Source: Acidocella sp.
GTDB lineage: Bacteria > Pseudomonadota > Alphaproteobacteria > Acetobacterales > Acetobacteraceae
Reading direction: 5' to 3'
NCBI GenBank assembly: GCA_027308685.1
Contig: DAIDEE010000049.1
Span: 1 to 64,000 of the forward strand
DNA: 64,000 nucleotides
Positions 2,396-22,477 of the stretch are shown here, one piece after another. The notes beneath the pieces were generated by a model. It was given only the letters and a program-made list of their open reading frames with translations, was not told the DNA's origin and did not search any database. Every line of letters begins with the position of its first letter. The stretch's first letter is position 1. A program made the position numbers and the translations under genes.

Positions 2396-3153
2396 TGAAC
2401 GCTCCCTCGCACCGCGCTCGGCACTCGCTCCTCTTCGCAGGTATCGCCCTCATTTCATCACCGTTCGCCGTTTTGCCTGCGCATGCGCAGATCGCCGTTT
2501 TTGATGCGAGCAATTTCGCCGAGAACGTCCTGACCGCGGCGCGAGAACTTCAGCAAGTCAACAACGAAATCCAGGGCCTGGAAAACCAGGCCACGATGCT
2601 CATCAACCAGGCCAAAAATCTCGCCAGCCTGCCATACTCGACGCTGGCACAACTCGACCAGCAGATCAGCCAGACCCAGCAGTTGCTCGCCGAAGCCCAG
2701 AACATTGGCTACGACGTGACGACGATCGATCAGGCCTTCACCGAGGTTTATCCCGAAACATATTCCAGCACGACGACATCGGACCAGTTGGAGGCCGACG
2801 CTCAGTCCCGCTGGGAAAACGCGCGCGCCGGGTATCAGGACGCGATGAACGTCCAGGCCGGCGTCGTGCAAAATCTGGCGACGACGCACGCACAAGTCGA
2901 TGCGCTGGTGTCATCGAGCCAAAGTGCTGAGGGCGCCCTGCAGGCGAGCCAGGCCGGGAATCAACTGCTGGCCATCCAAAGCGGCCAGCTCGCCGACATT
3001 ACGTCCTTGCTCGCGGCGCAAGGGCGCGCCGCGGCGCTGGCTGGCGCCAATGACGCGGAGACCCAGGCGCAGGCGCAAGCGCAACTCAACCAATTCCTTT
3101 CCACCGGTGCGGGTTACCAGCCGCAGACGGTGGAAATGTTCCATCAGCAATAA
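2392..3153 (+). CDS. trbJ: P-type conjugative transfer protein TrbJ
   Basis: A 253-residue TrbJ-like protein (VirB5 class), a minor periplasmic pilus component needed for mating-pair formation. Residues 1 to about 31 form a signal peptide ending in AHA. The rest is Gln- and Ala-rich helical sequence, including LQQVNNEIQGLENQATML, typical of the coiled-coil TrbJ/VirB5 fold. The ATG at 2392 overlaps the trbE stop (ATGA), which indicates translational coupling and favours this start over the upstream in-frame ATG at 2326. Position between trbE and trbL matches canonical trb operons; no separate trbK is visible. Confidence 0.88.
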   Translation: MMNAPSHRARHSLLFAGIALISSPFAVLPAHAQIAVFDASNFAENVLTAARELQQVNNEIQGLENQATMLINQAKNLASLPYSTLAQLDQQISQTQQLLAEAQNIGYDVTTIDQAFTEVYPETYSSTTTSDQLEADAQSRWENARAGYQDAMNVQAGVVQNLATTHAQVDALVSSSQSAEGALQASQAGNQLLAIQSGQLADITSLLAAQGRAAALAGANDAETQAQAQAQLNQFLSTGAGYQPQTVEMFHQQ

Positions 3154-3166
3154 TGGGGCTCCAGGC

Positions 3167-4507: not shown

Positions 4508-5190
4508 TGCAATTCCGCCGCGCCAGCCCGCGCTACGGCCGCACGCCCGAACCGGAGACGCCCTACCAGAAAGCCGCCCAGGTCTGGGATGAGCGCATCG
4601 GCTCCGCCCGCGTCCAAGCCCGCAACTGGCGGCTCATCGCATTCGGCAATCTGATTCTCGCCGGCGGCCTGGCCGGCGGCTTGGTCTGGCAATCCGCCCG
4701 CGGCACCGTCGTTCCTTGGGTGGTGCAGGTGGACAAGCTCGGCCAGGCGCAGGCCGTAGCACCCGCTGTAGCCGATTACCGGCCAACCGATCCGCAAATC
4801 GCCTGGCAGCTCGCGCAGTTCATTCAGGACGTGCGCTCCCTCCCCGATGACCCGATCATCGTCCGCCAGGACTGGCTCCGCGCCTATGCCTTTACCACCA
4901 GCCAAGGCGCCGTGGCGCTGAATGACTACGCCCGCGCCAACGATCCCTTCGCCCAAATCGGCAAGATCCAAATTGCCGTCGATGTTTCCAGCGTCATCCG
5001 CGCCTCCGATAACAGCTTTCAGGTCGCCTGGGTCGAGCGTCGCTATCAGGATGACACCCTTGTCTCCACCGATCATTGGACCGCCATTCTCACGATCGTT
5101 CTCGCCCCACCCACGGACGCCGCACGCCTGCTGAAAAACCCGCTCGGCGTCTACGTCGATGCCATCAACTGGTCGAAGGAGCTCGACTGA
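4507..5190 (+). CDS. trbF: Conjugal transfer protein TrbF
   Basis: TrbF is the VirB8-like bitopic inner-membrane protein that nucleates the Trb channel. The 227-residue product has a Pro/Arg-rich cytoplasmic start containing TPEPETPYQKAAQVWDERIG, one transmembrane helix near residues 40-60, and a periplasmic domain ending in NPLGVYVDAINWSKELD. These features are diagnostic of the family. The start ATG overlaps the trbL stop (TAATG) after an AGGAG ribosome-binding site. The stop overlaps the trbG start. Confidence 0.92.
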   Translation: MQFRRASPRYGRTPEPETPYQKAAQVWDERIGSARVQARNWRLIAFGNLILAGGLAGGLVWQSARGTVVPWVVQVDKLGQAQAVAPAVADYRPTDPQIAWQLAQFIQDVRSLPDDPIIVRQDWLRAYAFTTSQGAVALNDYARANDPFAQIGKIQIAVDVSSVIRASDNSFQVAWVERRYQDDTLVSTDHWTAILTIVLAPPTDAARLLKNPLGVYVDAINWSKELD

Positions 5191-6188
5191 TGCGATACTT
5201 TTCCAAGCCGCTTCTTCCTCTGACGGGAATGCTGGCACTTGCCGCCTGCGCACCAACCTACAAGCCGCCGCGCATCAGCTACGACAACCCGTCGCAGCGC
5301 GCAGTCTTGCTGCCCGACCCACCGAAGCCGGTGGACATCATCCAGGTCCCGACGCCGCTGCCACTGCCCGGTCAGTTGGAGCGCGTACCCGCTGGCCGAA
5401 TTTCGCCGCCGGAACTGCCGGATCCAACGGCGCGCGTGGCAGCGGCGAATGCGGCGGCCCGGATGCAGCCGATCCGCGACGATTATATCAACGCCATCCA
5501 GGTTTACCCCTTCACGGACGGCGCGCTCTACGAAGTCTATGCCGCCCCCGAAGAAATCACCGACGTTGCATTGCAACCCGGCGAACAGCTTGTCGGCTCC
5601 GGCCCCGTCGCCGCCGGCGATACCGTGCGCTGGATCATCGGCGACACCACGAGCGGCACCGGCGCGAGCAGCCAGGTCCATATCCTGGTCAAGCCGACAC
5701 GGCCGGACCTCACCACGAACCTCATCATCAACACCAACAGGCGGACCTATCACCTGGAACTGCGCTCTACGGCGGCGACCTACATGGCCTCGATCTCCTG
5801 GAACTACCCTGAGGACCAGTTGATCGCGATCCGGCAGCAGAACGCTCAGGCCGACGCGGCAGCGCCAATCGCCACCGGCGTTGACGTCTCGGCGCTGAAT
5901 TTCCGCTACCAGATCGAGGGGGACAATCCGCCATGGCGGCCGCTGCGCGCCTTTGATGACGGGCGCCAGGTGTTCATCGAATTCCCAAGCGGCATCGGCC
6001 AAGGCGATATGCCGCCGCTTTTCGTCATTGGCCCAAGCGGCAAGACCACCGACCTCGTCAATTATCGCGTCCGCGGCTCCGACATGATCGTCGACACGCT
6101 GTTCGCCGAGGCCGAGCTTCAGATGGGCGATGGCAGTTCCCAGCAGCGCGTCCGCATCGTCCGGACCGATGGTATCCCGGCACAATGA
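5190..6188 (+). CDS. trbG: P-type conjugative transfer protein TrbG
   Basis: TrbG is the VirB9-like protein of the outer-membrane/periplasmic core of the Trb secretion channel. The 332-residue product begins with a lipoprotein-type signal ending in the lipobox LAAC. A proline-rich spacer follows, then the VirB9/CagX beta domain, including RTYHLELRSTAATYMASISW near the centre and a C-terminal FVIGPSGKTTDLVNYRVRG block. Start and stop overlap those of trbF and trbI, so the genes are translationally coupled. Confidence 0.92.
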   Translation: MRYFSKPLLPLTGMLALAACAPTYKPPRISYDNPSQRAVLLPDPPKPVDIIQVPTPLPLPGQLERVPAGRISPPELPDPTARVAAANAAARMQPIRDDYINAIQVYPFTDGALYEVYAAPEEITDVALQPGEQLVGSGPVAAGDTVRWIIGDTTSGTGASSQVHILVKPTRPDLTTNLIINTNRRTYHLELRSTAATYMASISWNYPEDQLIAIRQQNAQADAAAPIATGVDVSALNFRYQIEGDNPPWRPLRAFDDGRQVFIEFPSGIGQGDMPPLFVIGPSGKTTDLVNYRVRGSDMIVDTLFAEAELQMGDGSSQQRVRIVRTDGIPAQ

Positions 6189-7363
6189 GCGGCCAGCAGC
6201 CAGAAGGCGGTGATCGGTCGCTCGCCGCGGAACTGCGCCTGCGACCCGACCGGCCGAAAGTAACGCGGATTTCCCGCAAGGTGCTAATCGGTCTCGGAAC
6301 AGTCGCCAGCGTCTCGGTCCTCGGGCTGACATACTGGGCGCTGCAATCGCATGGCGCAAAACCTGAAAGCCAGAATCTCTACAATACGCAAAACCAGAAC
6401 GTCGCCGATGGCGTGGCGAGCCTACCCAGCAATTATGCGGACCTGCCGAAACCAGCGCCGAAACTCGGGCCACCGCTACCCGGCGACCTTGGCCCGCCGA
6501 TCCTCCATGCCGAGCAGAGCAGCAACACACCGGCAGGGACAAATGCGGCGAACCAGCAACTGATCCAGGAGCAGGACTCTGCGCGCACCAGCAGCCTGTT
6601 TGTCCAAACGGCGTCAGCATCGACCGCACTCCAACAGGGACCGGCGGGCAGCGTCATGCCGGGGCAAAGCAACGACGGGGCCGGCAATCAGCCTGCGGGT
6701 CCGTCATCGGACCAGAATATGCAGGACCAAAAACTGGCGTTTCTGAACGGGCCGTCCGACGCGCCGACCATCAGCTCCGATCGTCTGACGCCGGCCGCGT
6801 CGCCCTACATCATACAGGCAGGCACCATCATCCCCGCAGCCCTCATCACGGGCATACAGTCGGACCTGCCAGGCCAGATCACCGCCCAGGTGACCGAAAA
6901 CGTCTACGACAGCCCGACCGGGCAATATCTCCTCATTCCGCAAGGCGCCCGCCTGATTGGGGAATACAACAGTCAGGTCGCCTATGCTCAAACCCGCGTT
7001 CAACTCATCTGGACCCGTCTAATCATGCCTGACGGACAGTCCATCGTCCTCGATAACCAGCCTAGCGCAGACACCCAGGGCTACTCCGGGCTGCAGGACG
7101 GCGTGAACAATCACTGGGGAGCAATATTCGAGGCCGCGCTCATCTCAACATTCCTCTCCGTTGGCGCCGAAGCTGGCACCAGCAACCAGGAAAACAACCT
7201 GATCCAGGCCATCCGCAGCGGCGCCTCCGACAGCTTCAATCAAGCCGGTCAGCAGGTCGTAGAACGCGAACTCAACATTCAGCCGACGCTCACCATCCGG
7301 CCTGGCTTTCCGGTCCGGGTGATCGTCAATCGCGATCTGGTGTTGTCGCCATACGCTGAATAA
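6185..7363 (+). CDS. trbI: Conjugal transfer protein TrbI
   Basis: TrbI is the VirB10-like protein that spans from inner to outer membrane in the Trb channel and gates substrate passage. The 392-residue product has a cytoplasmic start, a transmembrane helix near residues 38-55 (LIGLGTVASVSVLGLTYW), a long Pro/Gln-rich periplasmic linker, and the conserved C-terminal VirB10 domain with IIPAALITGIQSDLPGQ and LIPQGARLIGEYNSQ. It ends with the typical PVRVIVNRDL motif. The ATG overlaps the trbG stop by four bases. Confidence 0.93.
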   Translation: MSGQQPEGGDRSLAAELRLRPDRPKVTRISRKVLIGLGTVASVSVLGLTYWALQSHGAKPESQNLYNTQNQNVADGVASLPSNYADLPKPAPKLGPPLPGDLGPPILHAEQSSNTPAGTNAANQQLIQEQDSARTSSLFVQTASASTALQQGPAGSVMPGQSNDGAGNQPAGPSSDQNMQDQKLAFLNGPSDAPTISSDRLTPAASPYIIQAGTIIPAALITGIQSDLPGQITAQVTENVYDSPTGQYLLIPQGARLIGEYNSQVAYAQTRVQLIWTRLIMPDGQSIVLDNQPSADTQGYSGLQDGVNNHWGAIFEAALISTFLSVGAEAGTSNQENNLIQAIRSGASDSFNQAGQQVVERELNIQPTLTIRPGFPVRVIVNRDLVLSPYAE

Positions 7364-7720: not shown

Positions 7721-9769
7721 TCAAAAATCAGATAAGAATTCTGATCCAGGAGAGACTCCTGTCACCAGCAAACTATCCCGCGCGCGCGTGCACGCCACAT
7801 ATAGCAAATGCCTCTCCGTCATGTACATGTCCTCAAGGTCAGCATCATCAGAAACAGATTCGATCCGCTCCTGAAGCGGCAGAACGTCCTCGTCACAAGC
7901 CATCACCACAACTGCCCTAAACTCCAAGCCCTTTGCCAAATGCATGGTACAAATCGCGACGTGATCTGCCTCCACTTCAATCTCTTCGGTCAGCTCACGC
8001 GCACTTAATCCGGCCGCCGTGGCCGCATCGAGGGCCCGCTTAACCTCCGCTTCCGATCGAACAAAAATTGCGATCTCATCTGCCCGATAACCCTCCCGCA
8101 ACCGGTCCATTATCCAGCCCCGGACAACCTCCCGCTCCGCGGCGGCATCGTCGCACAGGCGCACAACCGGTTCCGGCCCATCAAACATCGAAACGGTGCC
8201 CTTGCGGCTCTCCGCTAGCCCATCAACATCTGCGATCTCTTTCGGCAAAAGCTTGTCCGCATGGCTCCTAATCTGATGTGAAGTGCGATAATTGATGCGC
8301 AGGCCAGCCGACCGCCCCCGGACATCAATGCCCAACGATTTCATGGAGAACGGCTGCTGAAATATCCGCTGTCCCAGATCACCGGCCAGAAACAACCCAT
8401 TACGCCCACCGACCGCCAAAGCGCTGAAAAATTTTGCTTCCGGAATGCCAATGTCCTGCGCCTCATCGATCACCACAAAATCAAAAGGCTTCTCTCCAAT
8501 CGCAAGGTCTGCCGTCAGCCGCGCAAAAACCTCCGGCCACGTCACCATCTTACTGGCGGCTAAACCGGCCCGCACCTGAGCAAATACCCGCCAAAGCACT
8601 TCCCGCTGCTTCTCACCCAGCCTGGTCTTCCGCCCTAGCCTCACTACCTGCGCGTATTCCTCCTGAGACGTGACCTGCCAGGCATCCACCACGTCTACCC
8701 ACTCGCTCCACAGAAAAGCGGGAGAAAATTTCACGCCTTCCTTTGCCGCCACGTCGGTCAGCAACGCCCGGATCGTCGGGTCAGGCGCAATCACTGGCTT
8801 CCCATGCGCCTCACTATAAAGCTCCATCCCCAAGCTGCGCACCGACTTCACCGTCATGCGCGCTGCGACCGCCGGGTCATTGCCGACCAGTTGAACCAGC
8901 TTGCTTTTCAGCGAATTCGCCAATGCCGTTGAAAATGTCGTCAGCAAAATTTTTGCGGCCGGATTTGTCCTCGCCAAATGCACCGCTCGGTGCAGGGCGA
9001 CGATCGTCTTCCCCGTGCCCGCCGAACCCGAAACCCGCGCCGGCCCCGCAAAATCCCGCTCCACCAGCGCCTGTTGCGCCGGATGCAAAAACACCGCCCA
9101 TTTCTCCCACGGGTAGTCCAGTGCCCGCTGTAATTCCTCCGCGTTCGTCAGTACGCGGAACCGCCGCTGCGCATCGGGGTGCGCAAAGGGGTCGGCATCC
9201 ACTGGCGCCGGCTTGGGGACTTCAGGCTTCTCGCCGACCGCCAGCTTTAGTAACGCCTCCTGCGCTTCCTGCGGCAGATGCTTGATGATATCGAACAGGC
9301 TATCCTCATCCGCCCGGCGTACATCATCCACCCACTCCTCCGGTACGCCGAATGACATCAGTTCGAATTTCCGCAGATTATCAAACAATTTTGGTTTGAC
9401 CGCCGCCTTCGGCGCAAAGACCTCAATCTCTTGGACGCGCTCCCGCACCTCCACCAGCTGCATCGCACCAGTCGTCGGGTGCCTCTCAATTTTTCGGCGT
9501 TCCGCCCATTTGTAGGCCGGGTCATGATGCGCGACATAGGCCAGAAGCAAACTCGATGGCGTGCGATGCACGATCAGCCGAATATCCGCATTCACTCTTA
9601 CTGACCAGAAATTCTTATCCTGCGCTCGATCGAGCTTGTGAAACGAAAGCCCCGGCGCGGAGGGGTCCAATTGTAGGTCAAACGCCGTCGTTTTAACAGC
9701 CTTCTGCTCTTGGCCCGTCAAACGCGCCAAACTGTCGGTGAAGGTGTCTGCGATGCGAAATTCAATCAT
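7721..9769 (-). CDS. RelE-like domain fused to UvrD/Rep-type superfamily 1 helicase
   Basis: A 682-residue two-part protein. Residues 1 to about 95 look like a RelE/ParE toxin fold, with HKLDRAQDKNFWSVRVNADI and LIVHRTPSSLLLAYV close to type II toxin strands. The rest is a superfamily 1A helicase: Walker A GSAGTGKT at 248-255, Walker B DEAQD at 435-439, INYRTSHQIR, the HLAKGLEF motif V and YVACTRARDSLL as motif VI. All helicase motifs look intact, so ATP-driven DNA unwinding is expected. It is the last gene of the six-gene minus-strand operon, 4 bases after the HNH gene. No cognate antitoxin gene is adjacent, so the RelE-like part is probably a nucleic-acid or ribosome-binding module rather than a free toxin. 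Confidence 0.85.
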   Translation of the reverse strand: MIEFRIADTFTDSLARLTGQEQKAVKTTAFDLQLDPSAPGLSFHKLDRAQDKNFWSVRVNADIRLIVHRTPSSLLLAYVAHHDPAYKWAERRKIERHPTTGAMQLVEVRERVQEIEVFAPKAAVKPKLFDNLRKFELMSFGVPEEWVDDVRRADEDSLFDIIKHLPQEAQEALLKLAVGEKPEVPKPAPVDADPFAHPDAQRRFRVLTNAEELQRALDYPWEKWAVFLHPAQQALVERDFAGPARVSGSAGTGKTIVALHRAVHLARTNPAAKILLTTFSTALANSLKSKLVQLVGNDPAVAARMTVKSVRSLGMELYSEAHGKPVIAPDPTIRALLTDVAAKEGVKFSPAFLWSEWVDVVDAWQVTSQEEYAQVVRLGRKTRLGEKQREVLWRVFAQVRAGLAASKMVTWPEVFARLTADLAIGEKPFDFVVIDEAQDIGIPEAKFFSALAVGGRNGLFLAGDLGQRIFQQPFSMKSLGIDVRGRSAGLRINYRTSHQIRSHADKLLPKEIADVDGLAESRKGTVSMFDGPEPVVRLCDDAAAEREVVRGWIMDRLREGYRADEIAIFVRSEAEVKRALDAATAAGLSARELTEEIEVEADHVAICTMHLAKGLEFRAVVVMACDEDVLPLQERIESVSDDADLEDMYMTERHLLYVACTRARDSLLVTGVSPGSEFLSDF

Positions 9770-9773
9770 GGTT

Positions 9774-10682
9774 TCATCCCTTGAAGACGTTTTCGCGGTG
9801 CCAGCGCAAAAAGAGCGGATGAGGAGCCTGATCAGCGTGAGGCGGCGCCAACATCACGCGGTCAGGATTTAATAACCTTGCCGCCTGCTCCGGTACATGC
9901 CCCTTGGCCAACAACAGCGTATGATCATCGCTGATCGAGATAAGTCCGCGATCAAACATCCAATGAACCGTAGAACACAAAGCCAAGCCGTTTCTCAAGG
10001 AGTCTGGGCCATTGCTCGCGACTGGCCGGACATGGGCAGCCTGAACTTCACTCCTGCCGCCTCCGTTGATGATCTTCAATCCGGTGAACGCGCATCTATC
10101 CGCATACGCCCTCTTGACCGTTCCCGAGAAGGCAGCATCTCGGAAGGGCCGCGAAATGACTCGCTCCACAATCGGCCGCTCAAATTCCGCCGGTGACTCG
10201 GAGAAACCCCTCGAATGTGATTCTATCTTTAGTTCCTTAGACCTGCTCTCCTCGAGAATTCGTACGAACCCGGCGCGCAAAATTGCTTCGTACTCGCTCT
10301 CCGGCAAATATCGAGCAGATCGGCCAAACGCGCCCTTGCTCGTTTCCCCATCTTCGCGCCGCAGGACTGCCTCGTAATAATTCCCGCCTTCTCTGAAAGG
10401 CACCGGCCTCACGAATTCCAAATACGAGTCGACATAGGCATAAAAATAATCCGACCGTGTCGGGTCAGGTACAATCCTGATAACGCGCGCAGTGGCAAAA
10501 TAGCACTGACGGCCGCCTCGGCTGGAAAGGTCGCCAGACGACCTGCGCGGTTCATAATAGATAATCCAATCATTCAAGGCCGCTTCAACCTGACGAAGAT
10601 ACGTCCGGGGGAAGTGGTAGTGCGTTTCCGGAAGATCATCATACGCTGGATCGACCTTCGTTGTGAGAACCGCCTTTGCCAT
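9774..10682 (-). CDS. HNH endonuclease (predicted restriction endonuclease)
   Basis: A 302-residue protein with a C-terminal HNH nuclease domain. CAFTG is followed by VQAAHVRPVASNGPD, then LRNGLALCSTVHWMFDRG, giving the His, Asn and His metal-binding residues in order (about 210-265). The N-terminal 150 residues, with HYHFPRTYLRQVEAALNDW, resemble the substrate-recognition half of COG3440-type predicted restriction endonucleases. It lies 9 bases after the GIY-YIG gene and 4 bases before the helicase gene on the same strand, so co-expression is likely. Modification-dependent or sequence-specific DNA cleavage is the expected role; the target is unknown. Confidence 0.82.
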   Translation of the reverse strand: MAKAVLTTKVDPAYDDLPETHYHFPRTYLRQVEAALNDWIIYYEPRRSSGDLSSRGGRQCYFATARVIRIVPDPTRSDYFYAYVDSYLEFVRPVPFREGGNYYEAVLRREDGETSKGAFGRSARYLPESEYEAILRAGFVRILEESRSKELKIESHSRGFSESPAEFERPIVERVISRPFRDAAFSGTVKRAYADRCAFTGLKIINGGGRSEVQAAHVRPVASNGPDSLRNGLALCSTVHWMFDRGLISISDDHTLLLAKGHVPEQAARLLNPDRVMLAPPHADQAPHPLFLRWHRENVFKG

Positions 10683-10691
10683 GGCTTACCG

Positions 10692-11255
10692 TTAGGCGCC
10701 CTTTTTCTTGGTCTTTTTGAGCACTTTCTTTTGACCCCGAGTATATTTTCTTTCAATATATATTGTTCCTGGCTCAAAATCTCGGACATCAGCCGGTTGA
10801 ATATCGTTTCTGATTTTTTTGTTATTGAAATCCAACAGCGGCCCTGCCGCCCTAATCATAATGGTTTCAATCTCTCGCTCGTGTGGCTTGTGAAACACGA
10901 TGAAAAATGAAAAATACGCAAGTTCTAAAACCTGTGCCTTCCTTCGAGCGTCTAACCTACTGAAGATGTTTCCTCGTCCAATGTATCTCGGATACCCCAT
11001 TGAATCGTGGGCTATATAAACTCCTACAGAAGGTATCTGTTCCTCTACGAAATACTTTTTTACATCCTTCAAAAATTCGTAAGGAATTTTCTCTCCGATA
11101 GCCTTAAACAATTTTTCAATCGTAGCCGGCCGCCCTGCAGGAATCGCAAGATTTCCATGCACTATTCTCCAAGGAGTTTTCTTTGCAATTTCACCACCGA
11201 ATTTCTTTATAGACGGCTTTTTTGGTCCCCCGGTCTTTTTCGCTTGCTTCGCCAT
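10692..11255 (-). CDS. GIY-YIG-like nuclease domain protein
   Basis: A 187-residue protein with Lys-rich ends and a GIY-YIG-type core. GVY at 78-80 replaces GIY, RYIG lies at 90-93, a conserved Arg (R100) follows, then a helix with EREIETIMIRAAGPLLDFN (about 126-144) carrying the catalytic-type Glu and the terminal Asn. Family knowledge makes it a metal-dependent DNA endonuclease. Base composition is far more AT-rich than its neighbours (one 60-base line at 11041 has only 19 G or C), suggesting separate acquisition. It sits 24 bases after the methyltransferase gene and 9 bases before the HNH gene. Its small size and lysine-rich tail leave open a DNA-binding accessory role. Confidence 0.75.
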   Translation of the reverse strand: MAKQAKKTGGPKKPSIKKFGGEIAKKTPWRIVHGNLAIPAGRPATIEKLFKAIGEKIPYEFLKDVKKYFVEEQIPSVGVYIAHDSMGYPRYIGRGNIFSRLDARRKAQVLELAYFSFFIVFHKPHEREIETIMIRAAGPLLDFNNKKIRNDIQPADVRDFEPGTIYIERKYTRGQKKVLKKTKKKGA

Positions 11256-11279
11256 TCTGCCAGAATACCCCTTTAATCC

Positions 11280-14075
11280 TCATTCTACAGCAAACACCTT
11301 CATCACCTCGTCGCCCAAGTGATTGATCACCTTCACAGCAATTCGGCCGGACTTTGGTTTAGTGAACGGCCGGGAGACTTCGCGGTGCAGGCTCTCCCAG
11401 CCTTCCTCGTCAATCTCCGATTTCAGCGTCGTTTTCAGTGCCTTGTACGGGTCGTTCGCCCCAAGGAAATAGGCATGGCGGACGAAGAAACTTTCTTCGT
11501 TGTAGTCGGTGTCCAGCATCCATAGGGCGATGCCGTCGGTGCCTTCGGAGATCACTTCGCCTGTTTGCGGCTTGAAGACGTCCACGCCGAAAACCCGCAC
11601 GCGGATCATGTCTTCGCCGGCGTCTTCAATCTGGATGTCCGGCTCGCCGAATACCACGAACAGGTTGCCAGCGCCGGTCGCCTTCAAATCCGTTGCCATG
11701 TGCAAATCCGGGTTCATCCGGGCTTTTAACACCGTCACGCGGCCGAGCTTGGCGAATTCGGCCGAATGCGCGTCGTAGCTGAAAGCGCAGGCGATCAGCA
11801 CGTCGAACCCGGCATCGCCGGCTTCGCGCGCGGCGGCCACCAGGTCGGGCCGGGACACGGTGCCGAATTCCGGGCCGATGAAGATGCCGGCGCGGCGCCG
11901 CACTTCACCTTCCATGAAAATGCCCTCAGCGCAGATGAAGCGGCCCGGCCAGCCGGTGAGGCCGATGAACTGTATCCGGTCCTCCTTATGCGCTTGCTGC
12001 ACGCCGGCCGCGCGCAAGTTTTCCAGGATCATTTGCGCAAAATCTTGCGCCGCCTCGCCCCGGTCTACGCCCAAGCGCTGCCCAGCGGAGGCATCCATCA
12101 CGTCCAGCAGCTCGTCGTTCCAGTCTACCGCCAGGGTGCGGTGCGGCGAGAGGCTTTCCACCGTGAACGGCCCAGCCACACGAATGCGGGAATTGTCCGG
12201 GTACGGTTTGTCATACAAAAACTCGAACTCTGCTTTCGCAGCAATCGAGGCGTCGATCTCCCGCTGCCGCGCAATCCGCGCCGCCCACCAGGCTTCATGC
12301 GCGCTTTTTGCCGCCACCGGCCAGTTTTCTGCTCCTTCCCGCGGAATTTCCCATTCCTTCCAAGTTTTACCCAGCGCCTGATTCAGCGCCGCCCGCAACG
12401 GCTCCAGCACGGCTTGCGAACGCTCCCGGATCACGTCGATCTCGGCATTGTTGGCGATGGATTTCAGCGTTATATGCGGCACTCGCTCATACACAAACCC
12501 GTGCCGGATGTCGCCGCGCGTCGGCGTGGTTCTCGGCGCGGTGCGCGTCACCTCACTTTCCTTGCGCTGCCCTTCAGTTGAATCCGCCAGCAGATAATAC
12601 GCATAGCGCGCACCCATCAGCCGCGACCGCGCCAGCGCGATGGCCACTCGGCTGGTATCGATGGTGATCCACCGCCGCCCCCATTGTTCCGCGACATAAG
12701 CCGTGGTGCCGGAACCGCAGGTTGGATCGAGGACTAGGTCGCCGGGATCAGTTGTCATCAGAATGCAACGTTGCACAACGGCAGGCGCTGTCTCTACAAC
12801 ATATTTTTTGTCAGTTGCACTTCCAAGGTCCGACCACACGTTATTTGTGCTCTGAGCGATAAAGTCATCAAAAAATCGAACATACGCGAGCGTTGCACCT
12901 GATACTGCAATTCGGTCTGAGGCGATAAGGCGATTAAAACCATTGGTATGAGTGCTCCAATGTCTGTTTGCAGTCGGAAGATAGGTTTTACCTTCGTAAG
13001 AAATGGGATATGCGACATTACCGCCATGACCGCTTGAAGTAGCAATAACTAAACGAAACGGTTTGCCGCTTGCTGTTAGGTCGCCTTTGCTACTAAAATC
13101 TTCTCGAACCATCCCTCGTCGTCTTCCGTTCCCGAGATCAATTCTTGTATATTGACCTAGCTCCTGGATATTCTTCGATCGTACATTGAGATTTTCTCGA
13201 AATTTGATTGAAACTTTATCTTTTGCATACCACAAGATGAAGTCGGACACATTATTCAGTAACCGTTCGTCCTGTCCGGCTGTTTTCTTCAATGTAATGA
13301 TCGAGACTTCGTTTTCATCACCAAAAACTTCATCCATAACCGCCCGCACGCGATGCACATTCTCATCGCCGATTTGCACAAATATGCTTCCGCTTTCATG
13401 AATCAAATCTCGCGCCACCACCAGCCGGTCACGCAAGTATGTCAAATACGAATGTATCCCGTCCCGCCATGTATCGCGAAAAGCACGCACCTGCTCGGGT
13501 TCACGAGTAAGCTGATCTTTTGCTCCGTCCGTAACCTTATTAGACGTTGTGCTCCACTGAAAATTCGAATTGAATTTGATCCCATAAGGCGGGTCAAAAT
13601 AAATGCACTGCACCTTCCCCCTCAGCCCCTCGCGTTCCGCCAAACTCGCCATCACTGAAAGTGAATCTCCGGAAATCATCCGGTTCGACCAGTGCTGGTC
13701 ATGCTGATAAAACTCGGTCGCTGCCTCCTTATCCTTCAGCCCGTTAAAGTCCGCGAATAAATCCGGCGCCGCCGGCGCCGCCTCCTCCGCCCGCTCCCGG
13801 CTCTCCCGCTTCAAATCGTCGATAATAACCTTTGGATGCACTTTCTCCTGAATATAAAGCGGCGGCGCCTGCACAATCAGGTCCGACCAATCCTGCTCAT
13901 CCTTCCCCCGCCACACCAGTTGCGGGTCCAAATCCCGGTTCCGCCGCTCATACGCGACCTGCACCGGAGATTTCTCCTCCTCCCGCATCACCGACTCAAA
14001 CTCCGCCGTCGGAATATTTTTACGGCTCGCCGCTTCATGCGTCAGAGTTGCAACATCAATCGGCTTCTTGGCCAT
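11280..14075 (-). CDS. Beta-class DNA methyltransferase (Type III Mod-like)
   Basis: A 931-residue site-specific DNA methyltransferase. The catalytic motif IV DPPY (161-164) precedes the AdoMet-binding motif I DPTCGSG (450-456). This circular permutation marks the beta class used by Type III Mod subunits (N6-adenine or N4-cytosine). The intervening 258-440 region should hold target recognition. After motif I there are about 470 more residues, much longer than a plain Mod, including a PD-type stretch VLIACAFSYDAHSAEF of unknown role. The ATG at 14075 shares one base with the upstream TAA (TAATG). It probably protects host DNA against the Res-like nuclease encoded two genes upstream. DNA coding for 258-440 is markedly AT-rich relative to both flanks. 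Confidence 0.88.
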   Translation of the reverse strand: MAKKPIDVATLTHEAASRKNIPTAEFESVMREEEKSPVQVAYERRNRDLDPQLVWRGKDEQDWSDLIVQAPPLYIQEKVHPKVIIDDLKRESRERAEEAAPAAPDLFADFNGLKDKEAATEFYQHDQHWSNRMISGDSLSVMASLAEREGLRGKVQCIYFDPPYGIKFNSNFQWSTTSNKVTDGAKDQLTREPEQVRAFRDTWRDGIHSYLTYLRDRLVVARDLIHESGSIFVQIGDENVHRVRAVMDEVFGDENEVSIITLKKTAGQDERLLNNVSDFILWYAKDKVSIKFRENLNVRSKNIQELGQYTRIDLGNGRRRGMVREDFSSKGDLTASGKPFRLVIATSSGHGGNVAYPISYEGKTYLPTANRHWSTHTNGFNRLIASDRIAVSGATLAYVRFFDDFIAQSTNNVWSDLGSATDKKYVVETAPAVVQRCILMTTDPGDLVLDPTCGSGTTAYVAEQWGRRWITIDTSRVAIALARSRLMGARYAYYLLADSTEGQRKESEVTRTAPRTTPTRGDIRHGFVYERVPHITLKSIANNAEIDVIRERSQAVLEPLRAALNQALGKTWKEWEIPREGAENWPVAAKSAHEAWWAARIARQREIDASIAAKAEFEFLYDKPYPDNSRIRVAGPFTVESLSPHRTLAVDWNDELLDVMDASAGQRLGVDRGEAAQDFAQMILENLRAAGVQQAHKEDRIQFIGLTGWPGRFICAEGIFMEGEVRRRAGIFIGPEFGTVSRPDLVAAAREAGDAGFDVLIACAFSYDAHSAEFAKLGRVTVLKARMNPDLHMATDLKATGAGNLFVVFGEPDIQIEDAGEDMIRVRVFGVDVFKPQTGEVISEGTDGIALWMLDTDYNEESFFVRHAYFLGANDPYKALKTTLKSEIDEEGWESLHREVSRPFTKPKSGRIAVKVINHLGDEVMKVFAVE

Positions 14076-15952
14076 TATGCCATTTCCTCAGCCTGAACCT
14101 CGGCCGAATCATCATACAGGTCTTCTTCAGTATCTTGCTCAGGCTCACTTGTTGCTTCAGAATGAACAATTCGCTTGCCCATGGCATCGCTTACGATGCC
14201 TCCTAGCGCTGTCATTCGAGCCTGCAAAAATCCCTCAAAATCATCAGCCCGCAAAAACGTCGGTTCAATTAGATGAGACCGGAGAATGTCATCTAACTCC
14301 TCGGGACTTATCCCTTGTGTCGCTTCAATTTTCTTTAAATAGACTGAGGGAGCGGCGCCTCCGATTGTTCGATTAGAGGCATCCGACAAGGGCGTCTTGT
14401 TGATTATGGAATTGAAGTGAGATGCTTCTTTTCCTTGCAGCTTGCACCACGCCTGCGGAAAAATATGATGAATATCAACTTTATCGTTAAAGAAGGTCAT
14501 AATATCGACTGGCTTACCCGTAATAAAATCGCGGCAGCCATGGCGCATCATCAGCGCGTGGATGCCCTTATATGCCGCCGATTGACGAGATCTGAGCGAC
14601 CAAAGCCGATCCGCTCTAAAAATGGCTTCATTGATCGAACGTGGTGGAGCGCCATCTGCTTCGATCCATTCCACCAATTCTGGGACGTCCCGGGCAAGCT
14701 TGGACTCGGTTCCCGATCCATACAGTTCGCCAAGTGTCACGCACCAGAACCAAGTGGCAAGTTTCTTTTTTGCGGCCGCAGTCGCGGCTTTGCTCTTTAG
14801 GATAGCGAAAACCGCTGCCATCGCGACAATCTGCGGCGGATAGGGCACATCTTTTTGCCAAATGATCTTTTGCTCGTTTAGGAACGTGGCAGCAGCAATA
14901 AAGCCACCTTCAACAGCATCGGCGTGAGTTTTATATGCAATCAGTGGCAAACCCAAAAGAGCGTCGCGATTGCAGCTGATGGGTGGGATTTCTTTACCGG
15001 TCGCGCCTGACGTGATCTTATCTAGCCGACGCTGGCGGGTGTGCAATAGGGTGCAACACTGAAGAAAATCCGTACTAGGAAGCTTCGACAAGACATCACG
15101 CCGATTGGGATGTCCGATGATACTTTTCAGCCGGCCCGATTTTTGTGTTTTGATATCGCCATTCCAGTCCTCGCGAAGTAAAAAGCCATCGGCAGCATAG
15201 ATCGCCGTAACGAGCTCAAAAGCATCCAACTTTTTGCCACCGACATTTACCTTTTCGAACACAAGGCAAATAGCCTCACGACTATTTTGCTTGTCTAATC
15301 GGATAATAGGAACTTTGTACCGCTGTATCCGGTCGACGACCTCAAGATAAAATCTTTGATCTAAATTGTTGAGATTGGCGCCAGTCTTTTCCCAATAGTT
15401 TCTCCAGCCATAAATCCAGTTCATTGCATCAAAGATGCGATTTGCAGGAAACATGTTGTGCTGATATTCGAGATCGGGCGTACTCAAATCAAGAACACCT
15501 GTCTCGTTGGAATAGTTCCGGACGATTCGATCTGCGGGAACACCTAGTATAGCGTCACCTATGTCAGCATCGAGTTCTAGTGCCGCCTTGATATCAATAT
15601 AGTAAAAGCGGCTAACTTCAGTGTTGCGCTGAGTCTTTGTTAAGACCGATGTTTGAGAATACATCGTCTGAAACAGCGATGTCATGCGTTGCTGTCCATC
15701 CAACAAAAGTTCGCTGGGTTCGACGGTCTTCGCAGTCACACCTTCAAGCAGCCTGGCCTTAAATTTTACTGGTCCCCCTGTTTCCAACGTCAAAAGAGCG
15801 CCCACCGGAAACCCTTTCGCGACGGAAGCGATCAAACTGCGTACGTCCTCGTCACCCCAGACGTAGCTGCGCTGGAAGTCTGGGAGTTGGAGCCGACCAT
15901 CATTGATCGACTTGAGCAGGTCTTTCAAATCTTCTTTAGTGATATCAAACAT
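14075..15952 (-). CDS. DUF262 / HNH (GmrSD-like) protein
   Basis: A 625-residue protein with the GmrSD architecture in one chain. The N-terminal DUF262 ParB/sulfiredoxin-like domain carries LPDFQRSYVW (23-32) and the invariant DGQQR (85-89), which in GmrS and relatives hydrolyses nucleotides. The C-terminal half has a DUF1524-like HNH nuclease motif HHIFP starting at about 495, with downstream Asn residues (INKTPLSDASNRTIGG). Known relatives (GmrSD, BrxU, SspE) cut modified or phosphorothioated DNA. The ATG at 15952 overlaps the Res stop (TGATG) and is preferred over the TTG one codon earlier. Its place between Res-like and Mod genes implies it works with, or backs up, that restriction pair. 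Confidence 0.88.
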   Translation of the reverse strand: MFDITKEDLKDLLKSINDGRLQLPDFQRSYVWGDEDVRSLIASVAKGFPVGALLTLETGGPVKFKARLLEGVTAKTVEPSELLLDGQQRMTSLFQTMYSQTSVLTKTQRNTEVSRFYYIDIKAALELDADIGDAILGVPADRIVRNYSNETGVLDLSTPDLEYQHNMFPANRIFDAMNWIYGWRNYWEKTGANLNNLDQRFYLEVVDRIQRYKVPIIRLDKQNSREAICLVFEKVNVGGKKLDAFELVTAIYAADGFLLREDWNGDIKTQKSGRLKSIIGHPNRRDVLSKLPSTDFLQCCTLLHTRQRRLDKITSGATGKEIPPISCNRDALLGLPLIAYKTHADAVEGGFIAAATFLNEQKIIWQKDVPYPPQIVAMAAVFAILKSKAATAAAKKKLATWFWCVTLGELYGSGTESKLARDVPELVEWIEADGAPPRSINEAIFRADRLWSLRSRQSAAYKGIHALMMRHGCRDFITGKPVDIMTFFNDKVDIHHIFPQAWCKLQGKEASHFNSIINKTPLSDASNRTIGGAAPSVYLKKIEATQGISPEELDDILRSHLIEPTFLRADDFEGFLQARMTALGGIVSDAMGKRIVHSEATSEPEQDTEEDLYDDSAEVQAEEMA

Positions 15953-18900
15953 CAAACGACCTCCTCTAGCCGGAGCCCTTCGATTAAAGCCCCAAACTCT
16001 GTTTCAACCTCGTACACGGCTGTGAATTCTGCGAAGGCCCATCGGCCGAATTTCTGTAAGTTATTGACGCCTGGGACCCAATAGGCGCGCATGGTGTTCG
16101 CCTTCTCCTTGGCGTCCTCTCTCCGAAAACCTTTGATTTCGATGATCAGGTTCAGCAAATCTTCCCGCCCGTCATCCACCCGGACAATGAAGTCTGGGAT
16201 ATACTTGCGCTGAACGGCGCCCATCACATAAGGCACTTCCAGCCCGAGGCCCTGGTTTTTCACGTAGGACCGGACCTGGGGATGCTTCTCCACCACCCGG
16301 CATAGCTCAGCCTCCCAGTCGCTGTCGCATACCACCCAGTTAATATGGCTGCGCCGCGGGCTGGTTTCCCAGCGCAGCGGTTTTGAGGTGGTGAAGTTGA
16401 CGTGGGCGGTTGAGCCGGTGGGGTTGTACGGGTCCAATATCGCCTTCACAGGGCTCTCGCCGGCTAGGGTAAGCGTGATGGCAGATTTGATCCGCTCCGC
16501 GGCCATGTCGCCGATTTCCTTATACATCAGCTGCGCGGGGAAGGTGCCGCCGGAGCATTTGAGATAGCCGCCTTCCAGCCATTGCCTCGTGATGCGCTTG
16601 AGCTGGCCGAACAAATGCTGTTTCGGCGGCTCTCCAGGATCCCGATACTTATGCTGCATCAAATAAACGGTGAGATAGAAAATCAGGCTGGAATTCCGCA
16701 TTTCACTCAGGTGCGCCAGCGTGAGGTCAGCGCCTTCGCCTACGATGCCTTGGGTTGTCGTGACGGAGGGCCCCACCAGATCGGGCGTCAGATTTAGCAT
16801 ATGGTCCGGTCCAAACTGGGCGTCCAGCCGTTCCGCTGGCAGGTCAACCCGGTAGCCTTGAACGCGGGGAAAGGTGATTTCCAGGGCATCCCGCTCGGGC
16901 CTCACCGCGTGGACCCGCACGGTCGGCCGCGGGGGCACCGGCACGACGATTACTGGCTTGGCGGCGAAATCGAATGGAATGCCGAGGATGTCTGCGTATT
17001 CGACATCGAACAGCCCTTCGGCGTTCAACGTGTACGATTGCCGGCGCAGCCCCCGCCCGACCACCTGTTCGCACAGAAGCTGGGTGCCAAACGCCCGGAC
17101 GCCGAGAATATGGGTGACGGTATTCGCGTCCCAACCTTCAGTGAGCATGGAGACGGAGACGACGCAGCGGATTTGCTCGCCGAGCCGGCCCTTCTTGCCG
17201 ACAGTATTCATCACCTCTCGCAGCAGCGTGGCGTCCTCGATCTTGTCGCCGATATGCGGATCGCCGCTGCGCTCGACCAGGTCGCGGCGAAAACGCTCGA
17301 TTTCATCGGACGCGATGTCGCGGAAATCTTTATCGAGGACCTCGCCAGATTCGAGCTGGGCGCTGTCGATCAAAATGGTATTGGGGCGAGGTATGCGGTT
17401 GCCGTAGTCATCAAAATTGCGGAAGAGTGCTAGGCGGCCATTTTCCGGCTGTGAAGTTCCGTCATCATTGACCCGGATAAAGCCAGAAACATACTTGAAA
17501 ATGAGTTCCGAGGTGGCCGTGTTGTTGCAGACCACGATGAAAACCGGCGGGATGCCGATCTTCTCGGCCTCCCATAGCAGGAAAGTTTTTTCGTAGTGGC
17601 CGTACAGGGCATCTAGCGCCGTCAGCAGTTCCGCCGGCAGGCTTAGTGGGTCCAGCGTTTTGCCGCCGGAACCGCGCCCTTTTTTGGGCATCTTCTTGCC
17701 GATATACTCCCAGAGATTGCGGAACTTTGGGGTGTCGCCGCCTGGGACATTATCGGCGACGGGCACCCGCGGCAGCTTGACGATACCGGATTCGATTGCG
17801 TCCATCAGAGAAAAATCACTCATGGTCCAGGGAAACAACGTTCCTTCAACATAGCCCGACCCACGCAGGAAGAACGGCGTCGCGGACAGGTCGTAAACCA
17901 TTGAGATGCCGAGCTTGCGTTTCACCGCCTCAAGACCGGAAATCCACATGCGGGCAGCCTCGTTGTTCTGCTTGGCCTCGTCCTTCTCCTCGCCCTTCAG
18001 GTCGTCCTCGGTTTCGCCGACTGCGTCCTTGACGCGTTCGCGGTAGCAATGATGCGCCTCGTCGTTCAATACCGTGACATTTTTGATTCCCATCAAGCTG
18101 GGCATGACCCGCTGGAGCATCTGCCCCTCGGTTTCCAATGTTTGCAGCTTCTCGCCTCGCCAGCCCTCGATGGCGGCGCGCGTCCCTTTCGAAACGTCTT
18201 CACGCTCGCGCAGCTTGAAAGCGTGGTAGTTGGTTATAACGATTTTGGCGTGGTCGATGTCGCCCAGCATGTCGGGCGGGACGATCTCCCGGTGGCGGTA
18301 GTAGCTTTCAGGGTCGTTGGGCAGGAGAACCCGAAGGCGGTCCTTGATGGTGATGCCGGGCGCGACAATCAGAAACCCGTGGGAGAACGTTTTGCTGTTC
18401 TTGTAACGGGCCGCGTTCACCGCTTGCCAGGCGATCAACATTGCCATGACCGTGGTTTTGCCAGCCCCGGTGGCCAGTTTCAACGCAAGGCGCATCAGAG
18501 CCGGGTTAGCCTGGGCATTGGCGCCCTTCAGGTGCTGCCAAAACTTGGCGCCGCGCGCGCCTGATTTCGGCGCTACCTCAGTCAGCCAAATCGCAGTCTC
18601 AACCGCTTCAATCTGGCAGAAAAACGGTTTTATGCTTTGGAAATCATGGTTGCGCCAATGATCGAGGAGCCGAGCGGTCTCAGGCGTTACCTGCCATTGC
18701 TCAGGGTTTGGAAGCGCTCTCCAAACTTCGACGTACCCACGCACCTCGTTGATGATGGGCGTCGGGTTATATTCTTGCTCCTCGGTGGAGAGCCCCTCGC
18801 CGGTGTCGAACACCATGTGCGTTTGGTCTTTGGCTTGCCGCCGCTTCTTTGGCTTGGGGACTGGCGTTATCAGGTCAGAACGACGGCGGCATTCGATGAT

Positions 18901-19008
18901 CTGACTTGTAGGCTGCCCGTCGTCGTTGAGTTCCCAATGCCTAGCGGGAAACGCGTAGGGGGAATTCAGAATGGGGCGCTCAAAGAACTGATCCGTCAAT
19001 ATTGCCAT
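15952..19008 (-). CDS. Type III restriction (Res)-like helicase/endonuclease
   Basis: A 1018-residue superfamily 2 helicase with a nuclease tail. Walker A ATGAGKTT lies at about 179-186, the DEAHH box at 316-320, an SATPFF motif III follows, and QVVGRGLRR is motif VI. Near the C-terminus IPDFIV (about 938) and IIEIKGF (about 957-960) form a PD-(D/E)xK nuclease active site. This is the layout of Type III Res subunits. It is the first gene of the minus-strand operon, with its promoter expected in 19,010-19,240. The ATG at 19008 is chosen over a TTG two codons upstream. Together with the downstream Mod it should form a restriction-modification pair. Confidence 0.9.
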   Translation of the reverse strand: MAILTDQFFERPILNSPYAFPARHWELNDDGQPTSQIIECRRRSDLITPVPKPKKRRQAKDQTHMVFDTGEGLSTEEQEYNPTPIINEVRGYVEVWRALPNPEQWQVTPETARLLDHWRNHDFQSIKPFFCQIEAVETAIWLTEVAPKSGARGAKFWQHLKGANAQANPALMRLALKLATGAGKTTVMAMLIAWQAVNAARYKNSKTFSHGFLIVAPGITIKDRLRVLLPNDPESYYRHREIVPPDMLGDIDHAKIVITNYHAFKLREREDVSKGTRAAIEGWRGEKLQTLETEGQMLQRVMPSLMGIKNVTVLNDEAHHCYRERVKDAVGETEDDLKGEEKDEAKQNNEAARMWISGLEAVKRKLGISMVYDLSATPFFLRGSGYVEGTLFPWTMSDFSLMDAIESGIVKLPRVPVADNVPGGDTPKFRNLWEYIGKKMPKKGRGSGGKTLDPLSLPAELLTALDALYGHYEKTFLLWEAEKIGIPPVFIVVCNNTATSELIFKYVSGFIRVNDDGTSQPENGRLALFRNFDDYGNRIPRPNTILIDSAQLESGEVLDKDFRDIASDEIERFRRDLVERSGDPHIGDKIEDATLLREVMNTVGKKGRLGEQIRCVVSVSMLTEGWDANTVTHILGVRAFGTQLLCEQVVGRGLRRQSYTLNAEGLFDVEYADILGIPFDFAAKPVIVVPVPPRPTVRVHAVRPERDALEITFPRVQGYRVDLPAERLDAQFGPDHMLNLTPDLVGPSVTTTQGIVGEGADLTLAHLSEMRNSSLIFYLTVYLMQHKYRDPGEPPKQHLFGQLKRITRQWLEGGYLKCSGGTFPAQLMYKEIGDMAAERIKSAITLTLAGESPVKAILDPYNPTGSTAHVNFTTSKPLRWETSPRRSHINWVVCDSDWEAELCRVVEKHPQVRSYVKNQGLGLEVPYVMGAVQRKYIPDFIVRVDDGREDLLNLIIEIKGFRREDAKEKANTMRAYWVPGVNNLQKFGRWAFAEFTAVYEVETEFGALIEGLRLEEVV

Positions 19009-19014
19009 CCCCAA

Positions 19015-19494: not shown

Positions 19495-19571
19495 TGGCGG
19501 ACCCGGCGCGATTCGAACGCGCGACCTTTGCCTTCGGAGGGCAACGCTCTATCCAGCTGAGCTACGGGTCC
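19495..19571 (-). tRNA. tRNA-Arg(CCG)
   Basis: The minus strand folds as a complete 77-base tRNA: acceptor GGACCCG/CGGGTCC, D arm GCTC/GAGC, anticodon arm TTGCC-CTCCGAA-GGCAA with anticodon CCG, T arm CGCGC/GCGCG around TTCGAAT, discriminator G and encoded CCA. It marks the edge of the accessory island, which lies on its 3' side. Confidence 0.95.
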
Positions 19572-21533: not shown

Positions 21534-22271
21534 TCAAGCAACGGCCTGAACCTTCACCTCGACCTCGTAGGCACCATGTAACTCGGCCTTGGCCTCGCCC
21601 CGATGGTCGACCACCATGTAGCCACGGCCCCAGTTGGTCTCAACAAAGTCGTCAACCCCGAGCGTTTGCAGCTTCTTACGAATCTTGCAAATAAATACAT
21701 CAATAATCTTCGGGTTCGGCTCATCGAGTCCGCCATACAGATGATCCAGAATTGCCTCCTTGCTGAGTACCGCGCCTTTGCGCAGCGCCAGAATTTCAGC
21801 GATCTGGTATTCCTTCTTGGTCAACGGCACCGCCTGACCGTTGGCGTACAGTTTTTTTGCATTCATATTGATCTCAACCGCGCCAATTCGAAGCGCGTTA
21901 TCCTGAAACCCACGGCTACGCCGCACCAAATTCTGCACTTTCATAAAAACTTCTTCGTGTGAGAGTGCCTCTACAATCAGATCATCCGCCCCGGCCTGCA
22001 GCACCCGCAACCGGCCCGCTTCATTGAGGCTGCGTGTCAAAACCACGATCGAAGCTTTGGTCCGCGCCAACCGCAACCGACGGATCAAATCAATATCACC
22101 CAAGCGGTCCTGCGCAATGCGCAGCAACACCACATCGTAATCATAAAATTTAACCAAATCGAGCACTTCCTCGATGTCGTTCGTCTCATCAATCACCGCC
22201 AAGCGTGAGCGGAGGAAGGGAACAAGTAAGTCTGATTTATTATTAATTGTCTCAAAAGATAAGATTTTCAT
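21534..22271 (-). CDS. CtrA-like response regulator with degenerate receiver
   Basis: A 245-residue OmpR/PhoB-type regulator closely related to the cell-cycle master regulator CtrA. The DNA-binding half is highly CtrA-like (LTKKEYQIAEILALRKG and HLYGGLDEPNPKIIDVFICK). The receiver has lost its chemistry. The phospho-Asp position (51, in VVLLRI) is Arg, the acidic pair after E7 is Thr-Ile, and the TKP lysine position is Glu-Ala (V100-E101-A102). It therefore cannot be phosphorylated in the usual way and is likely a phosphorylation-independent paralogue or competitor at CtrA sites. A Lys/Glu-rich 20-residue tail follows the winged helix. It is divergently transcribed from the AIM24-family gene across an AT-rich palindrome. 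Confidence 0.85.
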   Translation of the reverse strand: MKILSFETINNKSDLLVPFLRSRLAVIDETNDIEEVLDLVKFYDYDVVLLRIAQDRLGDIDLIRRLRLARTKASIVVLTRSLNEAGRLRVLQAGADDLIVEALSHEEVFMKVQNLVRRSRGFQDNALRIGAVEINMNAKKLYANGQAVPLTKKEYQIAEILALRKGAVLSKEAILDHLYGGLDEPNPKIIDVFICKIRKKLQTLGVDDFVETNWGRGYMVVDHRGEAKAELHGAYEVEVKVQAVA

Positions 22272-22477
22272 GATAGACTTCCTTTCATTTGATCACATTT
22301 ACAACCCTGAGAAGTAATTGTCAATTATTTTATTGATTACTTCTTTAGGTTGTATTAAATTTGAGACAATATGTTGATTTATATTATTACTACCGACGTG
22401 CGGTTCGATGGTGGCTTTCAATACGCCCTGTGCTACCAACAAAGCGTAACGATAACCGCCCCACCGAAAGCAATTTA
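22272..22477. promoter_or_regulatory. Divergent promoter region with AT-rich inverted repeat
   Basis: The divergent spacer between the CtrA-like gene and the AIM24-family gene is much more AT-rich than its surroundings. GAAGTAAT (22311-22318) and ATTACTTC (22336-22343) form a perfect inverted repeat with an inner CAAT/ATTG pair. Imperfect extension reaches about 22303-22351. It is placed to act as an operator for one or both genes. Confidence 0.5.

What the first reader, a model, noticed from the sequence alone, without database searches (positions are those of the whole stretch)
21534..22271. CtrA-like regulator that has lost its phosphorylation site
The DNA-binding half is nearly CtrA-identical in its key helix, but D51 is Arg, D8-D9 are Thr-Ile and the TKP lysine is Glu. 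Such a protein could compete with real CtrA at promoters without cell-cycle phosphosignalling. It is a separate gene from any canonical CtrA, which should exist elsewhere.
Basis: partly seen in the sequence, partly recalled or inferred. Interest (0 to 1): 0.6.

Follow-up and report, generated by a model that had tools for sequence, protein, structure and literature searches.

The report
Master regulator without its phosphorylation switch
In a group of acid-loving bacteria the only copy of CtrA, normally a phosphate-switched regulator of cell cycle and swimming genes, has lost its phosphate-accepting site and the enzymes that would phosphorylate it, yet is strongly conserved, so it probably works without that switch.

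Summary
The ORF at 21534-22271(-) is a CtrA-type protein with R51, T8/I9 in place of the acidic pair and E101 in place of the lysine. It is not an error: R51 stands in 27 of 27 genus rows (25 different sequences), and the receiver is under purifying selection (dN/dS about 0.05).
This is its only one.
The upstream relay is gone too: neither ChpT nor CckA was found. In 73 Acetobacteraceae genomes, 21 of 21 relay-bearing ones with a readable CtrA keep D51, against 8 of 42 relay-less ones; the others have Arg (13), Glu (16), Ala, Ser, His or Asn. Relay losses are few on the tree, so this is not an independent-events test.
Best reading: a phosphorylation-independent, pseudo-receiver CtrA that still binds DNA, with output set by amount; the C-terminal Ala ending is conserved. 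Partial relay loss in Rhodospirillales is in print; I found no mention of the receiver's loss of its aspartate in the papers searched.

The parts
21534..22271 (-). CtrA-type response regulator gene with pseudo-receiver, 245 aa
21918..22271 (-). receiver domain, residues 1-118 (T8, I9, R51, T79, E101, L103); (beta-alpha)5 fold kept in the AlphaFold2 model
22119..22121 (-). codon 51, CGC = Arg, in place of the phospho-acceptor Asp
21606..21893 (-). winged-helix DNA-binding domain, residues 127-222, with the CtrA stretch KIIDVFICKIRKK
21537..21602 (-). disordered C-terminal tail (residues 224-245) ending in Q-A-V-A; last residue Ala in 25 of 25 different genus sequences while the rest of the tail varies
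22300..22324 (-). promoter-like elements conserved upstream of ctrA in the clade: TTGACA (22319-22324) and GGTTGTA (22300-22306)
   Evidence: read from the printed upstream sequences

Best explanation
This is the genome's only CtrA-lineage regulator, and it works without aspartyl phosphorylation. SHOWN: the acceptor Asp, the acidic pair and the lysine are gone; the CckA and ChpT genes were not found; the receiver fold and winged helix are predicted intact and under purifying selection. INFERRED: it binds CtrA-type sites constitutively, its receiver serving as a dimerisation or partner surface rather than a phospho-switch, and its output is set by how much of it there is, through transcription and through turnover by a protease that reads its conserved Ala-ended C-terminus. 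INFERRED history: the CckA-ChpT relay was lost first, after which the acceptor site drifted to Arg/Ser/His in the Acidocella-Acidiphilium-type clade and to Glu, a residue used in the laboratory as a phospho-mimic, in acetic-acid-bacteria-type genera.
For: Sole CtrA-type gene. R51 in 27/27 genus rows; median dN/dS 0.053 receiver, 0.024 DNA-binding domain; 56 of 118 receiver and 74 of 96 DNA-binding-domain positions invariant. ChpT absent by Pfam in 8/8 window-genus, 1/1 g38 and 6/6 g101 genomes (two sub-cut-off hits lie in 567- and 585-aa kinase frames) and by a 23-sequence family profile (controls 214-223 bits, all others at most 36 bits and inside kinase-length frames). CckA: 22 of 73 genomes at 299 bits or more, none of the 15 clade genomes; the next best hit is 270 bits; the query is CckA by NCBIfam. 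Residue 51 is Asp in 21/21 relay-bearing and 8/42 relay-less genomes. Three relay-less genomes keep a fully canonical receiver, as expected if relay loss came first. Share of the CtrA spacing N7 among TTAA-N6..8-TTAA: 0.45 in seven other window-genus genomes, 0.55 in g38+g101, 0.27 in five genomes in which no ctrA was found, 0.48 in relay-bearing ones. K+2 residue Leu in 27/27, which a review lists among residues favouring the active state (PMC12632262, section 18). C-terminal Ala in 25/25 different sequences. Rhodobacter capsulatus CtrA has activity when not phosphorylatable (PMC6363796 passages).
Against: In the window's own genome the N7 spacing is not enriched (8 of 39), nor in its sister G006 (14 of 49), so binding to the classical site is unproven for this species. 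No exact TTAA-N7-TTAA lies within 400 bp upstream of any clade ctrA; many window-genus promoters have an N8 version instead. The clade sits on a very long branch of the CtrA tree (5.2 changes per column), so function may have changed. The Ala ending is not kept in g101. Relay state changes only about twice on the tree, so the residue-51 association is not independent evidence. DivK, DivL, CpdR, RcdA, SciP, GcrA and CcrM were not searched.
Confidence: 0.57

Rival explanations
1. Signal-responsive pseudo-receiver: the receiver has acquired another input (a ligand, a partner protein, redox or pH) that switches DNA binding, so the protein is not simply constitutive.
For: The receiver is nearly as constrained as a working domain: 56 of 118 positions invariant in the genus, dN/dS 0.053. 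Conserved new residues T8, R51, L98, L103 in 27/27. The fold search returns structures titled RitR (redox sensor evolved from a response regulator), CosR and HP1043, atypical regulators for which inputs other than phosphorylation are known or proposed (names from titles; functions partly recalled).
Against: No ligand pocket or partner gene was found; the neighbouring genes are not conserved across the clade except a decarboxylase in the window's genus. Fold hits follow the general OmpR fold and carry no functional weight.
Confidence: 0.25
2. A CtrA duplicate that took over: the clade's protein descends from an old CtrA paralogue with a degenerate receiver, the canonical ctrA having been lost with the relay, and it now runs a different regulon.
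For: Very long branch separating the clade. Degenerate CtrA paralogues exist beside a canonical CtrA in the family, e.g. G054's second copy with Gly at 51. NCBIfam CtrA score only 212 against a cut-off of 350. No N7 enrichment in the window's own genome.
Against: Recognition stretch KIIDVFICK kept; CtrA is the best NCBIfam hit by over 110 bits; N7 sites enriched in most relatives.
Confidence: 0.2
3. Competitor of a canonical CtrA: a decoy that occupies CtrA promoters.
For: DNA-binding half similar to CtrA.
Against: No canonical CtrA in the 99.8%-complete genome; one match each in 21 of 24 same-genus genomes.
Confidence: 0.03
4. Decaying gene or artefact: loss of Asp51 reflects a sequencing error or a pseudogene on its way out.
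For: Some family members do lack or have broken ctrA: G097 with two stops, and genomes without a CtrA-level match.
Against: R51 in 27/27 rows, dN/dS near 0.05, intact frames throughout the genus.
Confidence: 0.02

Closest known systems
CtrA (cell-cycle response regulator, Caulobacter and other alphaproteobacteria)
   Same: OmpR-type receiver plus winged helix; recognition stretch KIIDVFICK(I/L)RKK; NCBIfam NF045991 is the best model; predicted receiver matches the CtrA receiver chain 4qpj_C (TM 0.86 by target length, rmsd 2.5).
   Different: No phospho-acceptor, no acidic pair, no lysine; 212 bits against the 350-bit cut-off; no CckA or ChpT found in the genome.
Pseudo-receiver / aspartate-less atypical response regulators (ChxR, HP1043, GlnR, RamR), reviewed in PMC12632262 (sections read)
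   Same: Receiver fold without the catalytic residues; for several, dimerisation without phosphorylation is reported in that review.
   Different: Those are single lineages of other regulators; here the global regulator CtrA itself is affected across many genera. The review text has 0 occurrences of CtrA (listing).
CtrA D51E and D51A laboratory alleles (passages of PMC6363796 and PMC12186491)
   Same: Change at the same residue; Glu used as a phospho-mimic, Ala as a non-phosphorylatable form.
   Different: Engineered, in species with an intact relay; here Glu, Arg, Ser, His, Ala and Asn are natural and occur without the relay.
Degenerate CckA-ChpT-CtrA relay in Rhodospirillales (PMC2877005 and PMC8116508, passages)
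   Same: Both report missing relay members in this order; the second finds ctrA in 72-82% but chpT, cckA and divL in 27-36% of genomes.
   Different: Neither set of passages mentions the receiver or residue 51 (a search of the first paper for D51 and receiver gave 0 hits).

Membership tests
CtrA | OmpR-type receiver plus winged helix with the CtrA recognition stretch | tested here: met
   Pfam; stretch 186-200; model
CtrA | Phosphorylatable receiver: acidic pair, Asp51, Lys | tested here: not met
   T8/I9, R51, E101; R51 in 27/27 genus rows
CtrA | Score above the curated NCBIfam cut-off for CtrA (NF045991, 350 bits) | tested here: not met
   212 bits. Gluconobacter 320.9 and Acidomonas 310 also fail, Falsiroseomonas 360.6 passes
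CtrA | CckA-ChpT relay encoded in the genome | tested here: not met
   no ChpT, no CckA
CtrA | Use of TTAA-N7-TTAA sites | tested here: inconclusive
   N7 share raised in relatives (0.45, 0.55) but 8 of 39 in the own genome against 0.27 in genomes in which no ctrA was found
CtrA | Control of cell cycle and motility genes | not testable with these tools
   needs ChIP-seq, RNA-seq, deletion
Pseudo-receiver response regulators | Recognised receiver lacking key catalytic residues | tested here: met
   Pfam Response_reg 35.7 bits with four of the usual five residues (DD pair, D, K) replaced
Pseudo-receiver response regulators | Active or dimeric without phosphorylation | not testable with these tools
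   needs purified protein

The most novel reading that the evidence does not exclude
A large part of one bacterial family has uncoupled the CtrA master regulator from phosphorylation: after the CckA-ChpT relay was lost, the acceptor site was remade at least four times on the CtrA tree, as Arg in Acidocella/Acidiphilium-type bacteria and as Glu, a natural phospho-mimic, in acetic-acid-bacteria-type genera, turning a phospho-switched regulator into one governed by dosage and proteolysis or by a new input.
Probability: 0.42. Interest if true: 0.75.

Novelty: new variant of a known kind. Interest (0 to 1): 0.56.

Why it matters
CtrA is the textbook example of phosphorylation-timed control of the bacterial cell cycle. 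A clade that keeps CtrA under strong selection while lacking the relay and the acceptor site is a natural experiment on which CtrA functions need phosphorylation. Repeated replacement by Glu in relay-less lineages would be natural counterparts of the laboratory D51E allele. It also bears on the open question of how pseudo-receivers work.

Tried and rejected
Rejected: a second, canonical CtrA in the genome. Rejected: sequencing error or pseudogene. Tried: ChpT missed because it is small and divergent; a 23-sequence family profile gave the same answer as Pfam. Tried: autoregulation of ctrA through an exact TTAA-N7-TTAA; none within 400 bp in the clade, though found upstream of ctrA in 6 of 22 Glu51-type rows within 200 bp. 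Tried: gene order as proof of orthology; no window neighbour is conserved outside the window's genus (one weak quinone-oxidoreductase match in L053), so no help. Tried: independent-pairs test of relay loss against Asp51 loss; only 1-2 pairs, no power. The Fisher p of 1.6e-10 ignores relatedness and is not used as a test. From the 50 listed sites I first thought N7 depleted in the own genome; the full counts (8 of 39) do not support that beyond chance.

Rows dropped: in the 73-genome table 10 genomes were excluded because no CtrA was found or residue 51 was unreadable. G044's row there is a divergent paralogue; without it relay-bearing rows are 20 of 20. The tree left out the three query rows and 13 truncated, divergent or earlier mis-extracted rows (16 names in all). 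Three genomes over the ChpT cut-off (G041, G055, G127) were read as kinases because the hits lie in 533-941-aa frames. G049 has ChpT but no CckA above 299 bits. In G158, ChpT and CckA are present but no CtrA was found, and in G097 ctrA is broken; these speak against the relay and CtrA always being lost or kept together.

Full report
WHAT IS THERE. The ORF 21534-22271 on the minus strand encodes 245 aa with a Response_reg and a Trans_reg_C domain. The codon for residue 51 is CGC at 22119-22121. Among NCBIfam models CtrA (NF045991) is far ahead, 212 bits against 97 for the next, but under its curated cut-off of 350.

WHO CARRIES IT. The window lies in a 2.86 Mb assembly, 99.8% complete, in 73 contigs. 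One genome of the same genus code (G002) has its ctrA on a contig of the same length, and with a CtrA of the same identity, as the record titled Acidocella sp. STC_51, so the genus is probably Acidocella; this is inference. Of 24 same-genus genomes beside the window's own, 21 have exactly one match at E<=1e-25, 76-87% identical; the 3 without are 77-83% complete. In the own genome the next best regulator is 28% identical, and its other eight OmpR-type matches lack the CtrA recognition stretch. So there is no canonical ctrA beside this gene.

R51 IS A FIXED TRAIT. All 27 genus rows read (25 different) have R51 and T8. Median pairwise dN/dS is 0.053 for the receiver and 0.024 for the DNA-binding domain; 56 of 118 and 74 of 96 positions are invariant; dS is high, so these ratios are rough. 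Against canonical family members the window protein keeps 28-31% identity in the receiver and 53-56% in the DNA-binding domain. Sister genera g38 and g101 (the latter probably Acidiphilium, from L042's title, 68% identical) have Ser (1 of 1), Arg (5 of 6) and His (1 of 6) at residue 51.

THE RELAY IS GONE. ChpT by Pfam PF10090: of 73 Acetobacteraceae genomes I read 23 as positive (a hit over cut-off in a frame of at most 470 aa); Caulobacter was the only one of 14 control genomes to ring. None of 15 genomes of g1, g38 and g101 is positive. A profile of 23 family ChpT sequences run on 56 genomes gave 214-223 bits in three positive controls and at most 36 bits, in kinase-length frames, elsewhere. 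For CckA I found a PAS-HisKA-HATPase-receiver protein in ChpT-bearing genome G069, confirmed as CckA by NCBIfam (442 bits best model; under that model's cut-off of 1000 for full-length proteins). In the same 73 genomes 22 have matches of 299 bits or more; the next best hit is 270 bits, among generic kinases about 32-44% identical. All 22 are also ChpT-positive. G000 has no match at E<=1e-35 (20 of 33 candidates scored).

RESIDUE 51 ACROSS THE FAMILY. Of the 73 genomes, 63 have a readable residue 51. With ChpT: 21 of 21 Asp. Without: Asp 8, Glu 16, Arg 13, Ala 2, Ser 1, His 1, Asn 1. With G044's divergent paralogue left out, 20 of 20 relay-bearing rows are canonical at all four sites checked, and 39 of 42 relay-less rows are not; the three exceptions are G051, G055, G127. 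Named examples with Glu51 are Gluconobacter (L044, L046) and Acidomonas (L061). On the CtrA tree Asp51 changes 5-6 times, at least 4 forced by well-supported branches, but relay presence changes only about twice, so the association cannot be tested as independent events. The tree used is the quick one (the careful search did not finish) and the clade's branch is very long. Exceptions to co-loss: G158 keeps CckA and ChpT without a detectable CtrA, and G097 keeps them with a broken ctrA.

DOES IT STILL BIND CtrA SITES? I used the share of spacing N7 among TTAA-N6..8-TTAA sites. Five genomes in which no ctrA was found give 0.27 (117/427); relay-bearing ones 0.48 (73/151); other alphaproteobacterial orders 0.44 (392/881); seven other window-genus genomes 0.45 (78/172); g38+g101 0.55 (67/122); Glu51 types 0.37 (222/596); relay-less Asp51 types 0.36 (203/559); a mixed set of four others 0.29 (407/1394). 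The window's species and its sister give 0.25 (22/88; own 8/39), i.e. no sign of it. That is the weakest point for this particular genome. Upstream of ctrA the clade has a conserved TTGAC...GGTTGTA arrangement and, in 9 of 24 window-genus rows, an exact TTAA-N8-TTAA, which is unexplained.

STRUCTURE AND TAIL. The AlphaFold2 model (26-row alignment) has mean pLDDT 80.7 and pTM 0.56, with a complete (beta-alpha)5 receiver, a winged helix and a disordered tail from residue 225. It matches the CtrA receiver chain 4qpj_C over 118 columns (rmsd 2.5; the chain is named CtrA). The K+2 position is Leu in 27 of 27 rows, Phe or Tyr in relay-bearing CtrA; PMC12632262 (section 18) lists Leu there among residues shifting CheY toward the active state. 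In the variable tail the last residue is Ala in 25 of 25 different sequences and the one before it Ile, Val or Met. Caulobacter CtrA is degraded by ClpXP through an Ala-ended C-terminus (recalled), so control by turnover is plausible here. In g101 this ending is not kept.

MECHANISM. I take it to be a phosphorylation-independent CtrA whose output follows its amount (0.57). A switch by another input is the main rival (0.25), and a paralogue take-over with a new regulon the next (0.20); these overlap in part.

WHAT IS KNOWN. PMC2877005 (passages) and PMC8116508 (passages) already report that Rhodospirillales lack relay members to varying degrees. In the passages read neither deals with the receiver. 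My ten paper searches showed no title or listing describing CtrA without its aspartate in Acetobacteraceae; subscription papers are largely not in that library. Passages of PMC12733265, PMC13214618 and PMC9756655 did not bear on it. Hence: relay loss known, receiver replacement apparently not described, overall a new variant of a known kind.

Noticed in passing
window 104-7363 (+): Conjugative type IV secretion genes: TraG/TrbE-like (104-2395), TrbL (2900-4507), CagX/TrbG (5076-6188), TrbI (6185-7363).
   Followed up: partly
window 7721-19014 (-): Defence-like island: UvrD-type helicase, HNH nuclease, 187-aa protein with no family match, type III methyltransferase, a GmrSD_N (DUF262-type) protein lying between the methyltransferase and a type III restriction-like protein. 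A tRNA-Arg gene lies at 19495-19571 between it and the decarboxylase/ctrA genes, perhaps the edge of an integrated element.
   Followed up: partly
L234 (G054, second CtrA copy); L231 (G044) and L230 (G118): CtrA paralogues with altered receivers: Gly at position 51 beside a canonical copy in G054; G044/G118 types with a changed recognition stretch (EVKSIDVLMHRLRKR).
   Followed up: no
genera g44, g74, g105 and genomes G108, G142, G218: Acetobacteraceae genomes with no CtrA-level match at all (g44 and G218 no match, the others only generic OmpR scores); in g74 (G158) CckA and ChpT remain.
   Followed up: partly
L252 (G000:C38:29773-29955 and flanks): A 244-aa kinase-like protein in the own genome with an H-box (AHDFNNILTG) and what looks like a degenerate catalytic half; could be a phosphotransferase-like remnant.
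   Followed up: no
ctrA promoters of the window's genus (L010-L030 and others): Conserved TTAA-N8-TTAA just upstream of a TTGAC box in 9 of 24 rows, one base longer than the usual CtrA spacing.
   Followed up: no
L123 and L221 (G238): One g101 genome carries two CtrA-type genes, the second 53% identical to the window's protein and also with Arg at 51.
   Followed up: no
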